From Candidatus Thioglobus sp. (lineage in GTDB: Bacteria; Pseudomonadota; Gammaproteobacteria; PS1; Pseudothioglobaceae): 64,000 nucleotides of DNA. The stretch covers positions 62,001-126,000 of the forward strand of contig JAOMCO010000001.1 of NCBI GenBank assembly GCA_028345055.1, written 5' to 3'. The translations under genes and the position numbers were made by a program. The notes beneath the pieces were generated by a model, which did no database searches, was not told where the DNA came from, and worked only from the letters and a program-made list of their open reading frames with translations. Shown here piece after piece: positions 16,101-24,110 of this stretch (positions are counted from its first letter, which is position 1; the number at the start of each line of letters is the position of its first letter).

Positions 16101-18536
16101 ATGAAGTCAAGATCCAAGGTTGTGGTTATTGGTGGAGGAATTGCAGGCTGCTCAACGCTTTATCATCTCACGCAGGAAGGGTATTCTGATGTTGTTCTTA
16201 TTGAGCGAAATGACCTAACAAGTGGAACAACTTGGCATTCAGCAGCCCAGGTTACGAATTTTGGAATGAATCAAACCATGATTGGTTTAAAGACTCATTC
16301 TATAAATTTATATAAAGAACTGGCAAATGACCCAAATCATCCTATCAACTATAATCATGCTGATGGAGGAATAAGACTTGCAAATACAAAAGAACAAATA
16401 CAGGGATATCGCCACTTCGCTTCAATGGCCCGAGGAATGGGAGTCAACTTTGAAGTAATTGATGCTGAGGAATGTCAACGACGACATCCATTAATATCAA
16501 AAAATAATTTGATTGGTGGATTATGGGATCCACTCGATGGCGATATAGACCCTTACCAGTTATGTCATTCAATGATTAGGAGAGCTAAGGAAGCTGGCGC
16601 TAAAGTCTACACAAATACACCAGTAATAGCTTTAGAACAATATAAAGATAGTACCTGGAAGGTAAGCACTGAGATTGGTGAGATTGATTGTGATATCATA
16701 GTTAATGCCTGTGGTTATAGGGTCAATGAGGTTGGAGCAATGATGGGAGTTCACCATCCAGTTGCTTCAATGGAACATCAATATTTTTTGACAGAAGATA
16801 TTCAAGAAATTATTGATGCAGATCACAGAATGCCTCTATTAAGATGCCCAATATCTGATTATTATTGTCGACAAGATAAGAATGGACTTTTGATTGGATT
16901 TTATGAACAAAATTGTAAAACTTGGGGAATGGATGGAATTGACCCAAACTTTGTCAATGCTCTTTGTCCAGATGATTTAGAAAGAGTTGTCGATGTCTTA
17001 GATGGGGCATTTGCTCGAATGCCAGCACTAATGAATGCTGGAATAAAAAGCATTATTAATGGCCCAATTACTTACACTATTGATGGTGCTCCACTAGTTG
17101 GAAAAATTCCTGGTAAAGAAAATGCTTTCTGCATCATTGGCTTAAGAGCAGGGCTTGGTGAGGGTGGCGGCCATGGATGGCTACTTGCTCAACAAATTGT
17201 CCATGGAGAAGCATGTTATGACACTTGGTGCCTTGATCCAAGAAGATTTACCTCAAATACTAATGTTGAAATGACATCCTTAAAAGCTATTGAGGACTAT
17301 CAAAACGAATTTCGCTTTCACTTTCCCCACGAGCAGCGCCCAGCTGCTCGCCGTGCCAAAACTACTTCTCTTACATCAGTAATGGAAAAAGAAAATGCAG
17401 AATTTACAGTTATAAATGGATGGGAACGTGTCGAATATATTAAGCCTTCAGAAGACTTCCATCCTTCTCTTTCATTCCACTTTGATGAAGCATTTGAAAT
17501 TATTGCAAACGAAGTAAAAAATATACAAAATAATGTTGGTCTTACCGAAGTAAATGGCTTTAACCGGTTTGAAATTACTGGTTCAGATGCTAGTAGTTTT
17601 GTTAATCGTATGTTCTGTGGAAACATTACCCAGAAGCCAGGCCGTGTTGGATTAGGCTACCTTCTCAATGACTTTGGAATGATCAAAAGTGAAGCTACTA
17701 TTTCCAATATTCCTGCCTCAGATCGAGGCCCTAAAAGAATGTGGTATGGTTCAGCCGCAGCCTCCGAGTTACACGATATGGATTGGTTAAATCAGCACTT
17801 AAAGGATGATGAAGATGTTGTAATCAAAAGCTTAACAAATGAACAAACAATTCTCCTCTTGGCTGGACCCAAATCAAGAGAAGTCCTCTCAAAATGTAGT
17901 CGCGAAGATTGGAGTAAGGAGACATTTCCATGGCTGAGTGTAAGAGAATGCTTCATTGGTTTTTCTGCAGCTACAGTAATGTCAGTTAGTTTCTCAGGTG
18001 AGCTCGCTTATGAAGTGCATGTCCCAAATGAATCTCTTTATGCAGCATACATTACTCTTAATGAAGCAGGTAAAGAGTTTGGAATGAAGCTCTTTGGATC
18101 TAGAGCTGTAGAGTCTATGAGGATGGAGAAAGGATATTTGGCATGGAAGTCTGATTTATTAACTGAATTTGATCCTTTTGAAGCTGGTCTTGAACGTTTT
18201 GTGGATCTAAATAAAGATAACTTTATCGGTAAAGAAGCGTTAAAAAGCCGATTAAAAGATGGCCCAAAACAAAAACTTGTTTGTTTAAAAATAGATTGTA
18301 AATATGCGCCTGCTTATAGTGGTGCCTCTGTCATAGATAATGATAAAGTTATTGGAGTAATAACCTCTGGGGAATGGGGATACAGAGTGAATCTCAACCT
18401 TGCATATGCATATGTGAACGCAGAAAAATCAAAAGAAGGAACACAAATGTATATAGATCTATTGGGAGAAATGCTATTAGTTGAGGTTATTCCATTTTGC
18501 TCTTATGATGAAAGCTATAGTAGAATACTCATGTGA
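16101..18536 (+). CDS. FAD-dependent oxidoreductase with GcvT/aminomethyltransferase C-terminus (dimethylglycine/sarcosine dehydrogenase family)
   Basis: VVVIGGGIAGCSTLYHLTQEG..LIERNDLTSGTTWHSA; C-terminal GELAYEVHVPNE...SMRMEKGYLAWKSDL, 811 aa. Confidence 0.85.
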   Translation: MKSRSKVVVIGGGIAGCSTLYHLTQEGYSDVVLIERNDLTSGTTWHSAAQVTNFGMNQTMIGLKTHSINLYKELANDPNHPINYNHADGGIRLANTKEQIQGYRHFASMARGMGVNFEVIDAEECQRRHPLISKNNLIGGLWDPLDGDIDPYQLCHSMIRRAKEAGAKVYTNTPVIALEQYKDSTWKVSTEIGEIDCDIIVNACGYRVNEVGAMMGVHHPVASMEHQYFLTEDIQEIIDADHRMPLLRCPISDYYCRQDKNGLLIGFYEQNCKTWGMDGIDPNFVNALCPDDLERVVDVLDGAFARMPALMNAGIKSIINGPITYTIDGAPLVGKIPGKENAFCIIGLRAGLGEGGGHGWLLAQQIVHGEACYDTWCLDPRRFTSNTNVEMTSLKAIEDYQNEFRFHFPHEQRPAARRAKTTSLTSVMEKENAEFTVINGWERVEYIKPSEDFHPSLSFHFDEAFEIIANEVKNIQNNVGLTEVNGFNRFEITGSDASSFVNRMFCGNITQKPGRVGLGYLLNDFGMIKSEATISNIPASDRGPKRMWYGSAAASELHDMDWLNQHLKDDEDVVIKSLTNEQTILLLAGPKSREVLSKCSREDWSKETFPWLSVRECFIGFSAATVMSVSFSGELAYEVHVPNESLYAAYITLNEAGKEFGMKLFGSRAVESMRMEKGYLAWKSDLLTEFDPFEAGLERFVDLNKDNFIGKEALKSRLKDGPKQKLVCLKIDCKYAPAYSGASVIDNDKVIGVITSGEWGYRVNLNLAYAYVNAEKSKEGTQMYIDLLGEMLLVEVIPFCSYDESYSRILM

Positions 18537-18554
18537 GTAATTTTTAAAAATACT

Positions 18555-19448
18555 ATGAATCGTTATAGTAAATTAATGAAAAGAGTCCAAGAGGGAGAAT
18601 GTATCTTAATTGATGGTGCAACTGGAACAGAGGTTGAGAGAAGGGGTGTACCAAAACTTGATAATGCTTGGAACGGAGGGGGCGCTTTAAGTCATCCAGA
18701 AACCGTTAAACAGATTCATAAAGACTATATCCAATCAGGAGCTGAAATCGTTATCAGTAATACTTTTGCTACTACCAAGCATGCTCTCAGAGATGCTAAT
18801 CAAGAAAATAACTTTGAAGCTTTAAACCGAAGAGGAGTTGAGCTTGCCATTCAAGCTAGAGAGGAGCTTGCTAAGGACAATATTCTAGTTGCTGGAGGAA
18901 TCTCATATTGGACTTGGACGGGTAATAAGCCAACACTGAAAGAGCTAGAATTATCAGTAACCAAACAAGCACATATTATGAGAGAGGCTGGAGCAGATTT
19001 TATTATGCTTGAAATGATGATTGATATCGAACAGATGGTAACTACGTTTGAAGCTGCCAAATCATCAGGTCTTCCAGTCTGGATAGGACTTACCTGTGAG
19101 CCAAACCAATCAGATCGGATGTGTTTAAGAGATGGAGATGACCTTGAAGATGTTATTAATCAAATTAAATCCGACTGTCCAGATGTTATTAATATTATGC
19201 ATACAGAAGTTAAGTTCGTAGGCCGATGCTTAACAATTCTTCAAAATCAATGGAATGGTTTAGTTGGAGTTTATGCTCATTCAGGCCAAACAGTAGATGG
19301 GAAATGGACTTTTGAAGATGTGATTTCAGCCAAAGAATATTGTGAATATTCTGCACATTGGAAGAAAAAGGGAGTCAGTTTTATAGGCGGCTGCTGCGGA
19401 ATTCATACTGAGCATATAAACTTAATACAAAAAGAGCTATTTAGCTAA
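18555..19448 (+). CDS. Homocysteine/betaine S-methyltransferase family (BHMT-like)
   Basis: LIDGATGTEVERRG, SNTFATTKHAL, C-terminal GGCCG zinc motif. Confidence 0.8.
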   Translation: MNRYSKLMKRVQEGECILIDGATGTEVERRGVPKLDNAWNGGGALSHPETVKQIHKDYIQSGAEIVISNTFATTKHALRDANQENNFEALNRRGVELAIQAREELAKDNILVAGGISYWTWTGNKPTLKELELSVTKQAHIMREAGADFIMLEMMIDIEQMVTTFEAAKSSGLPVWIGLTCEPNQSDRMCLRDGDDLEDVINQIKSDCPDVINIMHTEVKFVGRCLTILQNQWNGLVGVYAHSGQTVDGKWTFEDVISAKEYCEYSAHWKKKGVSFIGGCCGIHTEHINLIQKELFS

Positions 19449-19449
19449 T

Positions 19450-19893
19450 CTAATTCACCTTAATTGGTAAATCTGGTAACAAATCAATAACATGCCCATA
19501 TCCATCAGGGCCAAGTCCAGCAACTACGGCGTTAACTGCAGAAGAAATAAACGAAATATGGCGAAACGTCTCACGCAAATGGGGATTTGAAATGTGTAAC
19601 TCTACCTTATAGCCTGAATATGACTTTAATGCATCATGTATAGCTATTGATGTATGCGTATAGGCTGCAGCATTGATGATAATAACATCAACTTTTTGAA
19701 TAATTGCGTCTTGAATCCATTCAACAATTTCGCCTTCATAATTAGATTGCATGAAGTCAACTTTATGTCCAGCTTTTGAAGCTTTTTCTATGCAAGTAGT
19801 GGCAATACTTTCTAGAGTATCTCTTCCATAAATTTCAGGCTCACGAGTACCTAGAAGATTTATATTTGGTCCATTTATCACATATATATTCAT
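19450..19893 (-). CDS. aroQ: Type II 3-dehydroquinate dehydratase
   Basis: INGPNINLLGTREPEIYG, INAAAYTHTSIAIHDAL, VELHISNPHLRETFRHISF. Confidence 0.9.
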   Translation of the reverse strand: MNIYVINGPNINLLGTREPEIYGRDTLESIATTCIEKASKAGHKVDFMQSNYEGEIVEWIQDAIIQKVDVIIINAAAYTHTSIAIHDALKSYSGYKVELHISNPHLRETFRHISFISSAVNAVVAGLGPDGYGHVIDLLPDLPIKVN

Positions 19894-20357
19894 CTATTTG
19901 ATACTATTTTTTGATTAATTGACTCGATTGCAAGAATGTAACCCTGGTCACCCAGTCCGCTTATTAAGCCAACACCACTATCAGAAGCATTTAATGGCTT
20001 TGTATCATCTTGCTTGAAAATATTTTCTATACGAACTTCAACAACTGGTTTACTTTGGTTTGTAATTTTATTTAAAGCTTTACTAAAGGCTTCATAATCT
20101 ATCGATGATGATTTTGAACTACCAGCTGGATTAATGATAAAGGCATCAAATTTATTAATATCAATAATTAAGGCGCTCAAAAGCTCTGATACATTATCAT
20201 TTTGACGAAAATCTACGTCAAGATCAAATCTCTCAGAAGTCTCGATGCATTTTTGCTCTATGCTAGATAAAGATAGACCATCATAAGCTATCTCATTCTC
20301 GACACTTAAATCTGATAAACCAGGGCCATTAATTATTAATAATTTACTTCTGCTCAT
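19890..20357 (-). CDS. Degenerate AroQ paralogue (probably catalytically dead), overlapping aroQ by 4 nt
   Basis: LLIINGPGLSDLS, FIINPAGSSKSSSIDY, VVEVRIENIFKQ, GVGLISGLGDQGYILAIESI follows the AroQ fold without active-site residues. Confidence 0.75.
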   Translation of the reverse strand: MSRSKLLIINGPGLSDLSVENEIAYDGLSLSSIEQKCIETSERFDLDVDFRQNDNVSELLSALIIDINKFDAFIINPAGSSKSSSIDYEAFSKALNKITNQSKPVVEVRIENIFKQDDTKPLNASDSGVGLISGLGDQGYILAIESINQKIVSNR

Positions 20358-20515
20358 TTATAAATTAATTCCATTATTTTATAAAAATCATTTAATATTT
20401 ATTACAAAAGCTACTGCATAGCGCTTTGGCATATTATATATACCTCATGGTTTGTTGTATATGGACTTGATGTTAGTCTTTTAAATACGTCAAGATTATA
20501 ACTAAGTTGAAATAG

Positions 20516-21079
20516 TTAGTTTTTAACAAGAGATTCAATTAATGGTCGATAGTAAGAAAATGATGCACACTTTCTTTCAGGATCTTTCGCTTTTTCGTCC
20601 CAATATCTTAAATTTACGCATTGTTCTAAATAATCATTTTTTTCGAATTCACGAATTTCTTTCTCATTCATTGGACCGCCCTGAAGATTAAGAGTATTAA
20701 TGGAAGCAGGAGAAAGACGCATGAAATATTCTGGTCTAACTGCGCATAGATATCGTTTTGCCTCTACATGCTGACGAATGGGCTCAACGACAGATGCTGG
20801 AAAATACTCCTCAAGAAAATTAGCACCTACCTCCTCATGATAGTTGTTCACTCCATTTGACAATGATGATTCAGGGATTTCGTTTTTGTAATGACCTATA
20901 TCATGAAGAAGGGCTGCCACTATTTGAGTATGATCAGCGCCAGCTTCTTCAGCACATTGAGCCGCTTGAAGCATGTGTTGTGACATCGTGACCTGCTCTC
21001 CAAGATATGATTCAGCACCTCTTCTTTCAAAAATGTCTTGAATGAGGTCGACGATGTTTTCTGATGTAATCTTAACCAT
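20516..21079 (-). CDS. tmpB: HD-domain mixed-valent diiron oxygenase, PhnZ/TmpB-like
   Basis: YLGEQVTMSQHMLQ, ALLHDIGHY, YHEEVGANFLEEYFP, HVEAKRYL, QGGPMNEKEIREFE, RYWDEKAKD; overlaps the TmpA-like gene. Confidence 0.75.
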   Translation of the reverse strand: MVKITSENIVDLIQDIFERRGAESYLGEQVTMSQHMLQAAQCAEEAGADHTQIVAALLHDIGHYKNEIPESSLSNGVNNYHEEVGANFLEEYFPASVVEPIRQHVEAKRYLCAVRPEYFMRLSPASINTLNLQGGPMNEKEIREFEKNDYLEQCVNLRYWDEKAKDPERKCASFSYYRPLIESLVKN

Positions 21080-22217
21080 TAAAACTTCTTTTTTCTAAAG
21101 TATTGAGTAGGCTGTAAAGTCCATCGAGGTCTGTATAGGCACCTTGCAGGTGGCGCCTTCCATTTTTTGAAAATTTAGTTCTGGCATGCATAACTCGAGT
21201 ATTATCAAACAACAGCAAGTCTCCCTCAGAAAGCTTAAATTGAATCTTCAATTCATCTCTCTCAATAACCTCACTCCAGTGACGGTAAGCCATATAAAAA
21301 GATCTCATTTTATCTTTTGGCACTTTAATCGTATCTATAGAGCGGTTGTTATATCTGACCTTGATGATTTCATGATTGTCATTTAACTCGATCATAGGGA
21401 CTCTTGAGCGAAGATCAGTTTTAGAATCAGTAAATCGATAATTAATCCAGTTACTTGTCAATGTTTGAAAGTTCTCTTCGTTTTCATCACGCAGAATCGA
21501 GGCCGCTTTGAATCCGTCAACCAAGATGGAATCTCCACCCTCAGTAGAACTCTCAAGACAGTGAAGCAATTGGACGGTTGGGACAGGATCCCTGTATGGA
21601 TTGTCCGTGTGAGAACCAAGGCCCATATTTGTATAGGCCAGATTGTTTGGGTTGACTTCAGTTCTCACCTCAAACAATGCTCCATAGTTTGTTTCACGAG
21701 TGTATCCCATTTTACTGATGACTTTTAGTACTTGACCTTCAATAGTTGGGACATCTGTTATCACAAAGAACCCTAAGTCTCTTAATGAGCTAAGAGCAGA
21801 TAACTTCGTATCACTCTCATTTATAGAGTCATAGTTAATCAAAGGGATGCCAGTCTCAAAACTATTTTTCTGCCAGAGCTTTTTTATCTTTTCGCTTCTA
21901 TCTTCGAAGTGGCTTTTTAAATCATAGCAATTAGATCGAAGCCATTCTTGTGAAAAGACTGATAGGTGATTTTCAGGTTGAAATATTACACAAACATTCC
22001 CTAATTCATCCTTATAGACTTTTTCTATAGATATATCTGAGGGTAAATCTTTAACGCTAAAAAGTCTTTGCCCATTATCAATGTTTCTTGATTCAGGCAT
22101 CTGACAGTGGTCCCTAAGCCAGAAGCTGTAAAGGGAGCTATTGCTTCCATCCATCCAATCGATAACCAACTCATTATCAATAATAGAAATTTTTTTGATT
22201 AAATCTATTGTATCCAC
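21072..22217 (-). CDS. tmpA: 2OG-Fe(II) dioxygenase of gamma-butyrobetaine hydroxylase/TmpA type
   Basis: FWLRDHCQMPESRNIDNGQRLF N-terminal domain; GLGSHTDNPYRDPVPTVQLLHCL (HxD) and DNTRVMHART (distal His). Confidence 0.7.
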   Translation of the reverse strand: MDTIDLIKKISIIDNELVIDWMDGSNSSLYSFWLRDHCQMPESRNIDNGQRLFSVKDLPSDISIEKVYKDELGNVCVIFQPENHLSVFSQEWLRSNCYDLKSHFEDRSEKIKKLWQKNSFETGIPLINYDSINESDTKLSALSSLRDLGFFVITDVPTIEGQVLKVISKMGYTRETNYGALFEVRTEVNPNNLAYTNMGLGSHTDNPYRDPVPTVQLLHCLESSTEGGDSILVDGFKAASILRDENEENFQTLTSNWINYRFTDSKTDLRSRVPMIELNDNHEIIKVRYNNRSIDTIKVPKDKMRSFYMAYRHWSEVIERDELKIQFKLSEGDLLLFDNTRVMHARTKFSKNGRRHLQGAYTDLDGLYSLLNTLEKRSFNG

Positions 22218-22328: not shown

Positions 22329-23117
22329 TTAAGAAGATCGTCCAAGAAAGTTCTTTCTAATTTCAGAAGAAAAAGTAAAATCTGGTACTTCTGAATAACT
22401 TAATATAGCAACAATCCTCTCAGAATTATGTGCGACAGGAGCCACTCTGTGAAGTGAGTTTGATCCATTGAAAATTGCAAGCGTTCCTGGATTTTGAGCT
22501 AAACTAATTATGTCTTCGTCTTGATTATCTAAAATTGATAATTCTTTTTCACTCACTTCATTGATTGATTCTTTACAATTTGGAACAAATTCAAATTCTC
22601 CTCCATTGTCTGGCTTCTGTAACAAGAGTGTTACAACACCATCATTTGGATCATAATGCCATCCCAATTCATCACCACCCTTTTGGCTAGCGACTAAACA
22701 GCTTACTAGTGGGTCAGCACACTTAAAAAAATTATCTACTCTTAATATTTTTTTTAGAAATTCTGTAAAAATATCTGATTCATACAACAATCGTAGTTTC
22801 GAGTTTGGCGCCAATAAATCATATGCAAAAGTTTTCATTGAAGCCCTAGTTTGAATTGAATTTTCTTGCGCTTTTCTACTTTTTATACCAAAAGGTGATC
22901 TCCAACTCTCATTGTAAAAACCTTTCTCTTCATTATCTTTAACCTCAGAAATGACTCCATCAAAAAAAATACTAGTAACAAAATCAGGCAGTAAGCAAAG
23001 ACCATTTGTATCAATTTGCTTATGGCACAATGATATTAAGGCTTCATAGTGCTTAGATCCTATTGCGCTTATATCGTATTTTTTTAGATTTATAAGGCCT
23101 GATAAATTATTAGTCAT
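22329..23117 (-). CDS. 2OG-Fe(II) oxygenase, ArpA-like, substrate unknown
   Basis: GWHYDPNDGVVTLLLQ (HxD), FNGSNSLHRVAPVAHNSERIVAILSY. Confidence 0.6.
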   Translation of the reverse strand: MTNNLSGLINLKKYDISAIGSKHYEALISLCHKQIDTNGLCLLPDFVTSIFFDGVISEVKDNEEKGFYNESWRSPFGIKSRKAQENSIQTRASMKTFAYDLLAPNSKLRLLYESDIFTEFLKKILRVDNFFKCADPLVSCLVASQKGGDELGWHYDPNDGVVTLLLQKPDNGGEFEFVPNCKESINEVSEKELSILDNQDEDIISLAQNPGTLAIFNGSNSLHRVAPVAHNSERIVAILSYSEVPDFTFSSEIRKNFLGRSS

Positions 23118-23144: not shown

Positions 23145-24020
23145 CTACATAGCAATATTTTTACTTTTAGATTGCTGTCCAAAAAATGAAACCTCTTTAG
23201 GGTACTCTGGCAACTCAACACTATAACTTGTACACCTCACAGTTCCAGTTTCTTCTCCTCTGACAACCATTCCAACGAGGTCACTAGGGAGGTGATTGGG
23301 TGATAGAGCTACTGCATCCTCAGCCTTATAGGTCACAATAAACAGTGATCTTGAATGTTGTGATAAATTAGGTGCTGAACCGTGCAGTAACTTTGAATGC
23401 ATGAGGCAAGCCGAGCCAGCCTTTCCAGTGCAGCTTAGAGCTTTATCTTTATTTGATTCCATAACCTTGTCATCAACTGCTCCAGTAAAAACACCGTTCT
23501 GCCAATGTGAGTGGAGCGGTCCGTTATGTGTACCCGGAACCACTTCCAAGGGCCCATTATCTAAAGTCACGTCATCTAAAAAGTAAAGAACCGTCATAAT
23601 GTCCTCATTTGAATGTGGCTCAAAAGGAAAGTCTTGGTGGAACTTTACTTCAGTTCCTGCGCCAGGCAATTTGAGATTTATTTTGTTGCCCAGGTGAGTG
23701 ATATTTGGACCAAAGATCTCAGTAACCAGATCCAGTGCGTTATTGTCTTTGACAACATCAAGGCATATATCAGAAATCTCTGCAGGAGAGGTAATCCTTC
23801 TAACCGCAGGAGTTTCAGGAGAATGTGTGATTGGCTCGAGATCAAATCGAGGCCTACCGTCCATGATTCTGCCAAAAGGCTCTTTATGTTTTTTACTCTC
23901 CTCAACCCACTTGGACAGCTCAGAATTCAATGATGCGAGTTGTTCACTAGAAATAGCATCTTCAAAGAACAGGTAGCCATCCCTATGAAACTGTTCAATC
24001 AAACCTTTATTGTCTTGCAT
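23145..24020 (-). CDS. Phytanoyl-CoA dioxygenase (PhyH) family oxygenase
   Basis: QFHRDGYLFFEDAIS, VKFHQDFPFEPHSNEDIMTVLYFLDDVTLDNGPLEVVPGTHNGPL, LLHGSAPNLS; start taken at MQDNKG after GGAGGC RBS (ORF track extends to 24056). Confidence 0.85.
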   Translation of the reverse strand: MQDNKGLIEQFHRDGYLFFEDAISSEQLASLNSELSKWVEESKKHKEPFGRIMDGRPRFDLEPITHSPETPAVRRITSPAEISDICLDVVKDNNALDLVTEIFGPNITHLGNKINLKLPGAGTEVKFHQDFPFEPHSNEDIMTVLYFLDDVTLDNGPLEVVPGTHNGPLHSHWQNGVFTGAVDDKVMESNKDKALSCTGKAGSACLMHSKLLHGSAPNLSQHSRSLFIVTYKAEDAVALSPNHLPSDLVGMVVRGEETGTVRCTSYSVELPEYPKEVSFFGQQSKSKNIAM

Positions 24021-24110
24021 ATTAAGCCTCCAAATCGCATTATGAACCAAACTCAAGAAAAAATAAAGAAAAATTTAATGGTTGATTAGAAAGAATATAA
24101 AATTATCGCC

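What the first reader, a model, noticed from the sequence alone, without database searches (positions are those of the whole stretch)
16101..22217. Candidate phosphonate to glycine betaine to dimethylglycine to sarcosine locus (TmpA/TmpB-like pair facing DMGDH-like and BHMT-like genes)
Sequence: overlapping genes encode a BBOX/TmpA-type 2OG dioxygenase and a PhnZ/TmpB-type HD oxygenase, on the strand opposite a FAD/GcvT dimethylglycine-dehydrogenase-like gene and a BHMT-like gene. Knowledge: TmpA hydroxylates 2-trimethylaminoethylphosphonate and TmpB cleaves the product to glycine betaine and phosphate. BHMT would make dimethylglycine, and DMGDH would make sarcosine. Inference: these genes could link phosphorus scavenging from a choline-like phosphonate to one-carbon and methionine metabolism. 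No phosphonate transporter or regulator is visible in the window.
Basis: partly seen in the sequence, partly recalled or inferred. Interest (0 to 1): 0.7.

Follow-up and report, generated by a model that had tools for sequence, protein, structure and literature searches.

The report
TmpA/TmpB choline-phosphonate degradation genes in Pseudothioglobus
A small marine bacterium of the SUP05 kin carries, as most sequenced members of its genus do, the known two-enzyme pathway that splits a choline-like phosphonate into glycine betaine and phosphate; in three relatives the two enzymes are fused into one protein, but the neighbouring "BHMT" gene is probably not the enzyme that uses the betaine.

Summary
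The genes are real and at the stated coordinates. The window comes from a Pseudothioglobus (Arctic96BD-19/"Ca. Thioglobus") genome. The 21072-22217 protein falls with characterised TmpA (PDB 6npb), among genes that have an adjacent TmpB-like gene; gamma-butyrobetaine and trimethyllysine hydroxylase-like proteins lie outside. It keeps the published phosphonate-binding Asn/Asn/Arg. The 20516-21079 protein falls in the TmpB clade, PhnZ outside, with all diiron ligands and the YxxE loop. The pair is genus-wide; in three relatives it is one fused ORF (569-587 aa).

The rest needs correction. The "BHMT-like" protein scores far below the BHMT model, lacks one of three Zn-binding Cys, and is absent from both closed genomes. 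In this lineage glycine betaine is published to be demethylated by MtgBCD; every genome examined has MtgB-family genes, several beside DMGDH-like genes. DMGDH is plausible but one of about six paralogues. No PhnD, PhoB or Pho box supports phosphate-starvation scavenging.

Verdict: new member of a known pathway. The TmpA-TmpB fusion and a conserved URO-D-like partner in relatives are the novel extras.

The parts
21072..22217 (-). tmpA: 2-(trimethylammonio)ethylphosphonate hydroxylase-like Fe(II)/2OG dioxygenase
   Evidence: NF049936 TmpA 423 bits (cut-off 400 met); best PDB chain TmpA 6npb E 4e-95 against 4e-55 for BBOX; tree; N192/N291/R292 equal TmpA N187/N287/R288
20516..21079 (-). tmpB: HD-domain diiron oxygenase that cleaves the C-P bond
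   Evidence: best PDB TmpB 6npa 191.8 bits against PhnZ 122; TmpB clade 99/93 support, PhnZ outside; Y25xxE28, H35, H59-D60, H81, H104, D160; NF049941 253 bits, cut-off 300 not met
23145..24056 (-). PhyH-family Fe(II)/2OG dioxygenase, conserved first gene of the unit, substrate unknown
   Evidence: Pfam PhyH; HQD...H motif; upstream of tmpA at the pyrE locus across the genus
22329..23117 (-). HalD-like 2OG oxygenase inserted between PhyH and tmpA; HYD motif suggests hydroxylase, not halogenase
   Evidence: PF23169 48 bits; HYD at 154; not seen at this place in relatives
19890..20357 (-). degenerate AroQ (type II dehydroquinase) paralogue downstream of tmpB
   Evidence: DHquinase_II 62 bits; dN/dS 0.25; syntenic
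19450..19893 (-). aroQ, ordinary type II dehydroquinase
   Evidence: ORF and motif; syntenic
18555..19448 (+). divergent S-methyltransferase ('BHMT-like'), accessory; substrate unknown
   Evidence: PF02574 172 bits; BHMT model cut-off not met; zinc Cys missing; 9 of 26 genomes
16101..18536 (+). dimethylglycine-dehydrogenase-like FAD/folate oxidoreductase
   Evidence: PDB DMGDH 5l46 499 bits; DAO + FAO_M + GCV_T

Best explanation
tmpA (21072-22217) and tmpB (20516-21079) are overlapping, probably translationally coupled genes for the two-step oxidative breakdown of 2-(trimethylammonio)ethylphosphonate (TMAEP). TmpA hydroxylates the carbon next to phosphorus using Fe(II), 2-oxoglutarate and O2; TmpB, a mixed-valent diiron HD oxygenase, cleaves the C-P bond of the (R)-hydroxy product to glycine betaine and phosphate. 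(Reaction inferred from characterised homologues; family placement shown here.) The betaine most likely feeds the genus's methylated-amine metabolism: MtgB-type corrinoid methyltransferases elsewhere in the genome give dimethylglycine, and one or more of about six DMGDH/SARDH-like enzymes, perhaps including the convergent 16101-18536 gene, oxidise it further. (Inferred from gene content plus the published MtgBCD system.) With no PhnD, PhoB or Pho box found, uptake is probably by one of several OpuAC-type quaternary-amine ABC transporters, with carbon, nitrogen and methyl groups gained as well as phosphate. (Inferred.) The neighbouring BHMT-like protein is a divergent accessory methyltransferase and not the main betaine-consuming step.
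For: TmpA tree: the window lies in a 44-row clade (SH-aLRT 95) that holds 6npb TmpA; its members have an adjacent or fused TmpB-like HD gene wherever the flank allows a check, and BBOX/TMLH-like rows lie outside. All clade-diagnostic residues are present, including the phosphonate-binding Asn/Asn/Arg reported for TmpA in PMC9296572. TmpB tree: 44-row clade with 6npa, 99/93, PhnZ outside; complete H..HD..H..H..D and YxxE, the motif described in PMC8177086. TmpB in 23 of 29 genomes of the genus and one of another genus, none in the rest of the family. Natural TmpA-TmpB fusion in G015, G028 and G030. MTTB in all 26 genomes examined of the two genera that carry the pair, often beside DMGDH-like genes. 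OpuAC solute-binding proteins 2-5 per genome; no PhnD over cut-off in G000, G007 or G008; no PhoB over cut-off in 10 genomes; Pho-box matches fewer than chance.
Against: No activity was measured. The window's subclade is sister to, not inside, the clade of the characterised enzymes, and TmpB is below the NCBIfam equivalog cut-off (253 of 300), so a related quaternary-ammonium phosphonate could be the true substrate. The older gamma-butyrobetaine model TIGR02409 also rings above its cut-off (477 of 415). No transporter or regulator is tied to the genes. The downstream route is gene-content inference; DMGDH is far from tmpAB in closed G007.
Confidence: 0.78

Rival explanations
1. The pair acts on a different N-methylated or quaternary-ammonium phosphonate (for example dimethyl-AEP or a longer-chain analogue), with the same two chemical steps.
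For: The Pseudothioglobus subclade is separate from that of the characterised TmpA/TmpB; TmpB misses the NCBIfam cut-off; a PhyH oxygenase is probably co-transcribed.
Against: Phosphonate-binding Asn/Asn/Arg and the diagnostic residues checked are unchanged.
Confidence: 0.13
2. The 2OG enzyme is a gamma-butyrobetaine hydroxylase of carnitine metabolism and the HD gene is incidental.
For: TIGR02409 above cut-off; a BBOX-like gene with a neighbouring, very distant HD gene exists next to choline genes on a Pseudomonas plasmid.
Against: The tree separates BBOX-like rows; that plasmid's HD protein lies across a branch of 5.7 changes per column; tmpA and tmpB fuse and move together; R292/S293 are kept by all TmpA-clade rows.
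Confidence: 0.04
3. It is a PhnY*/PhnZ-type pathway for 2-aminoethylphosphonate or methylphosphonate, perhaps using the neighbouring PhyH protein as PhnY*.
For: PhnY* enzymes are PhyH-type dioxygenases (own knowledge); a PhyH gene heads the operon; weak hit to the methylphosphonate hydroxylase model (31 bits of 500).
Against: The HD protein is in the TmpB clade with PhnZ outside; PhyH is only 26% identical to a PhyH gene that sits beside an HD gene in Dietzia; no PhyH orthologue was found in G030, which keeps the fused pair.
Confidence: 0.04
4. The locus is a dedicated unit: TMAEP to betaine, to dimethylglycine by the local BHMT, to sarcosine by the local DMGDH.
For: Physical proximity in most of the contigs that reach far enough; the DMGDH-like and BHMT-like genes are 18 bp apart.
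Against: Opposite strands with aroQ between; BHMT-like absent from both closed genomes and DMGDH elsewhere in G007; zinc Cys missing; MtgB-family genes present.
Confidence: 0.1

Closest known systems
TmpA/TmpB pathway of Leisingera caerulea (PDB 6npb, 6npa; reviewed in PMC10574752)
   Same: Gene pair and order, domain families, phosphonate-binding and diiron residues, clade membership
   Different: Separate subclade; PhyH gene upstream; in three relatives the two enzymes are one polypeptide; different flanking genes
PhoF, a PhnY-PhnZ fusion of the fungus Fonsecaea multimorphosa (PMC10574752)
   Same: Hydroxylase and HD oxygenase joined in a single bifunctional protein
   Different: PhoF joins PhnY and PhnZ and uses AEP and APP; the Pseudothioglobus fusion joins a GBBH/TauD-type TmpA and a TmpB
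MtgBCDE glycine betaine demethylase/split methionine synthase (PMC12478193)
   Same: Links glycine betaine to methionine; reported from Ca. Thioglobus and Roseobacters; MtgB-family and MtgE-like genes are in this genus
   Different: Encoded elsewhere in the genome; not the window's BHMT-like gene
PhnY*/PhnZ (2-AEP; PDB 4mlm)
   Same: Same two-step chemistry and HD oxygenase family
   Different: PhnY* is PhyH-type; PhnZ falls outside the TmpB clade

Membership tests
TmpA | Above the NCBIfam NF049936 cut-off | tested here: met
   423 of 400 bits
TmpA | Groups with characterised TmpA apart from BBOX/TMLH | tested here: met
   44-row clade, SH-aLRT 95
TmpA | Phosphonate-binding Asn187, Asn287, Arg288 | tested here: met
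   N192, N291, R292
TmpA | Hydroxylates TMAEP, no activity on gamma-butyrobetaine | not testable with these tools
   needs an enzyme assay
TmpB | Above the NCBIfam NF049941 cut-off | tested here: not met
   253 of 300 bits; the PhnZ-type models also fail (203 of 214.6; 156 of 300). Filed with TmpB on tree and residues, as a divergent member
TmpB | Groups with characterised TmpB apart from PhnZ | tested here: met
   99/93 support
TmpB | H..HD..H..H..D ligands and YxxE loop | tested here: met
   motif from PMC8177086
TmpB | Adjacent to or fused with tmpA | tested here: met
TmpB | Cleaves (R)-1-hydroxy-TMAEP to glycine betaine and phosphate | not testable with these tools
   needs an enzyme assay
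Gamma-butyrobetaine hydroxylase (BBOX) | Above the TIGR02409 cut-off | tested here: met
   477 of 415 bits; the model does not separate this TmpA group
Gamma-butyrobetaine hydroxylase (BBOX) | Groups with BBOX/carnitine-type rows | tested here: not met
Betaine-homocysteine methyltransferase (18555-19448) | Above the NF005718 cut-off | tested here: not met
   85 of 338 bits; a 338-aa genus-wide protein elsewhere scores 459 but is probably MtgE-like, see PMC12478193
Betaine-homocysteine methyltransferase (18555-19448) | Three zinc-binding Cys | tested here: not met
   GGCCG kept, N-C motif reads INIMH or ISIMH
Dimethylglycine dehydrogenase (16101-18536) | DAO + FAO_M + GCV_T architecture, closest to DMGDH | tested here: met
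Dimethylglycine dehydrogenase (16101-18536) | Substrate specificity among the six homologues of the genome | not testable with these tools

The most novel reading that the evidence does not exclude
Pseudothioglobus runs a variant of the TMAEP pathway that is not a phosphate-starvation system: a genus-wide, probably Pho-independent route that treats a phosphonate as a methylated-amine food. In some members it is streamlined into one bifunctional TmpA-TmpB enzyme with a dedicated URO-D-superfamily methyltransferase-like partner, and in others it has a third (PhyH) oxygenase that widens the range of phosphonates fed to TmpB.
Probability: 0.27. Interest if true: 0.62.

Novelty: new member of a known kind. 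Interest (0 to 1): 0.42.

Why it matters
TMAEP breakdown was characterised in a Roseobacter relative and thought rare in the sea (tmpB-type genes in under 1% of surface bacteria according to the review PMC10574752). Finding it as a common trait of Pseudothioglobus, a genus with cultured strains and abundant in Arctic water (PMC12421898), gives testable organisms and suggests a choline-like phosphonate is a regular marine food. The fused TmpA-TmpB enzyme is a direct tool for testing substrate channelling. It also warns against reading BHMT from the S-methyltransferase fold alone.

Tried and rejected
The Rajakovich 2019 TmpA/TmpB paper is not in the library; residues were taken from PMC9296572 and PMC8177086. 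A PhnD-like gene beside the DMGDH orthologue in G015/G028 first looked like a phosphonate transporter, but at 66 of 261 bits it fails the PhnD model and no ABC partners are seen there. Alphaproteobacterial tmpAB neighbourhoods (MFS, ADH, lyase, mandelate-racemase family) gave no shared transporter with this genus. A search of viral contigs for TmpA and TmpB found none. The HD gene beside a BBOX-like gene on a Pseudomonas plasmid was considered as a counterexample, but its HD protein is very distant; it does show that 'BBOX-like plus HD' alone is not diagnostic. No earlier report of a TmpA-TmpB fusion was found, but most subscription papers are not searchable here.
Full report
Observation. tmpA and tmpB overlap by 8 bp; the DMGDH-like and BHMT-like genes are 18 bp apart on the other strand, and the BHMT-like stop lies 1 bp from the convergent aroQ stop. 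The host genome is 1.31 Mb in 54 contigs, 74% complete. Nearest named records are Candidatus Thioglobus and Candidatus Pseudothioglobus, so the genus is Pseudothioglobus (Arctic96BD-19). Absences are therefore judged mainly on the closed relatives G007 and G008.

TmpA. The protein passes both the TmpA model (423 of 400 bits) and the older gamma-butyrobetaine model (477 of 415) of NCBIfam, so models do not decide. The best solved structure by sequence is TmpA 6npb (E 4e-95; BBOX 4e-55). I gathered homologues from genomes and plasmids and noted whether a TmpB-like gene follows. In the tree of 73 rows the window lies in a 25-row clade of Pseudothioglobus plus two outside genomes, sister to an 18-row clade that holds 6npb. 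The joint 44-row clade (SH-aLRT 95) contains only rows with an adjacent or fused TmpB-like gene, apart from those whose contig end forbids the check; rows without one fall outside. The genus also has a separate trimethyllysine-hydroxylase-like paralogue (TIGR02410 294 of 268 bits). Residues kept by at least 93% of the TmpA clade and uncommon outside are all present in the window. PMC9296572 reports that TmpA binds the phosphonate with N187, N287 and R288 whereas human BBOX has only two Asn; the window has N192, N291 and R292, and R292 is kept in 44 of 44 rows.

TmpB. The HD protein has all diiron ligands and the YxxE loop (motif from PMC8177086), matches TmpB better than PhnZ (192 against 122 bits) and sits in a TmpB clade with 99/93 support, PhnZ outside. 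It is below the equivalog cut-off (253 of 300), as is the TmpB half of a relative's fused protein (260), so the genus is divergent within TmpB.

Distribution and fusion. A TmpB match was found in 23 of 29 genomes of the genus and in one genome of another genus, none in the rest of the family; most of the six genomes without a match are incomplete, and in G013 and G017 the contig ends just after the PhyH gene. TmpA parallels it. In G015, G028 and G030 the two are one uninterrupted ORF of 569-587 aa at a different genome place. The junction DNA differs among the three, which come from separate MAG assemblies, so a shared assembly error is unlikely. A PhnY-PhnZ fusion, PhoF, is known from a fungus (PMC10574752); a TmpA-TmpB fusion was not found in the literature available.

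Partners. A PhyH dioxygenase lies directly upstream of tmpA at the pyrE locus throughout the genus; in G015 and G028, where tmpAB is elsewhere, PhyH stands by itself near ftsK. No orthologue was found in G030, and G047 has only a 38% homologue elsewhere, so it is a likely but not obligatory partner. A 433-aa protein with a weak URO-D match follows tmpB in seven genomes and in both genome places. Its predicted fold (pLDDT 73) is closest to a Methanosarcina methyltransferase and uroporphyrinogen decarboxylase, at modest TM-scores of about 0.5-0.6. It is missing from the window's genome.

Downstream steps. The BHMT-like protein scores 85 of 338 bits against the bacterial BHMT model. In 9 orthologues the zinc Cys of the N-C motif is replaced (INIMH or ISIMH) though GGCCG remains (that these are the zinc ligands is own knowledge of BHMT). 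The orthologue occurs in 9 of 26 genomes and not in G007 or G008. A 338-aa genus-wide relative passes the BHMT model (459 bits), but PMC12478193 reports that MtgE, the homocysteine subunit of a split methionine synthase, is homologous to such a predicted Bhmt. That paper shows that MtgC and MtgD serve both betaine demethylation and methionine synthesis in Ruegeria, and reports mtgC reads assigned to Candidatus Thioglobus. Here all 26 genomes of the two tmpAB-bearing genera that were examined carry MtgB-family (MTTB) genes, 2 to 10 each, and the SUP05 relative G061 has none. Several lie directly beside DMGDH-like genes, including in the window's own genome (C34:32421 with 34033; C32:1131 with 2687). 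In G015 and G028 the orthologue of the window's DMGDH is followed by an MTTB gene. I did not search for MtgC and MtgD themselves.

Uptake and regulation. No PhnD passes its cut-off in G000, G007 or G008. OpuAC-type quaternary-amine binding proteins number 2-5 per tmpAB-bearing genome. No PhoB equivalog passes in ten genomes, though one in G012 is close (260 of 296). Pho-box-like sites in the window are fewer than in shuffles and none lies at this operon. The phosphorus-scavenging reading is therefore not supported, though phosphate would still be released.

Judgement. This is a firm member of a known pathway in a host group where I found no earlier report of it, with a corrected downstream route and two new leads outside the window (the fusion and the URO-D-like partner).

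Noticed in passing
L034:8813-10564, L036:8849-10558, L038:8795-10558: TmpA and TmpB are one fused ORF in three Pseudothioglobus MAGs, at another genome place than in the window.
   Followed up: yes
L034:10592-11893, L033:2594-3892, L055:10593-11891: A URO-D-superfamily-like protein of unknown function follows tmpB in seven genomes and in two genome contexts; its predicted fold weakly resembles MtaA/UROD.
   Followed up: partly
window 23145-24056: PhyH dioxygenase conserved as first gene of the tmpAB unit; substrate unknown.
   Followed up: partly
window 22329-23117; L047:1625-2470; L051:4711-5520: A HalD-like 2OG enzyme with HYD (hydroxylase-type) motif is inserted in the window's operon; HalD-like genes also lie near tmpAB in two Kiloniellaceae MAGs.
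   Followed up: no
window 19890-20357: A degenerate AroQ paralogue directly upstream of aroQ is conserved across the genus (43-71% identity, dN/dS 0.25) and appears to lack the usual active-site motifs.
   Followed up: no
L184:4751-9870: In G028 (and G015) the DMGDH orthologue is clustered with an MTTB methyltransferase and a D-cysteate sulfo-lyase (CuyA, 536 of 450 bits) beside a LysR gene.
   Followed up: partly
L238:1015-2031: Genus-wide protein that passes NCBIfam BHMT (NF005718) but is probably MtgE of the split methionine synthase, so that model may mislabel.
   Followed up: partly
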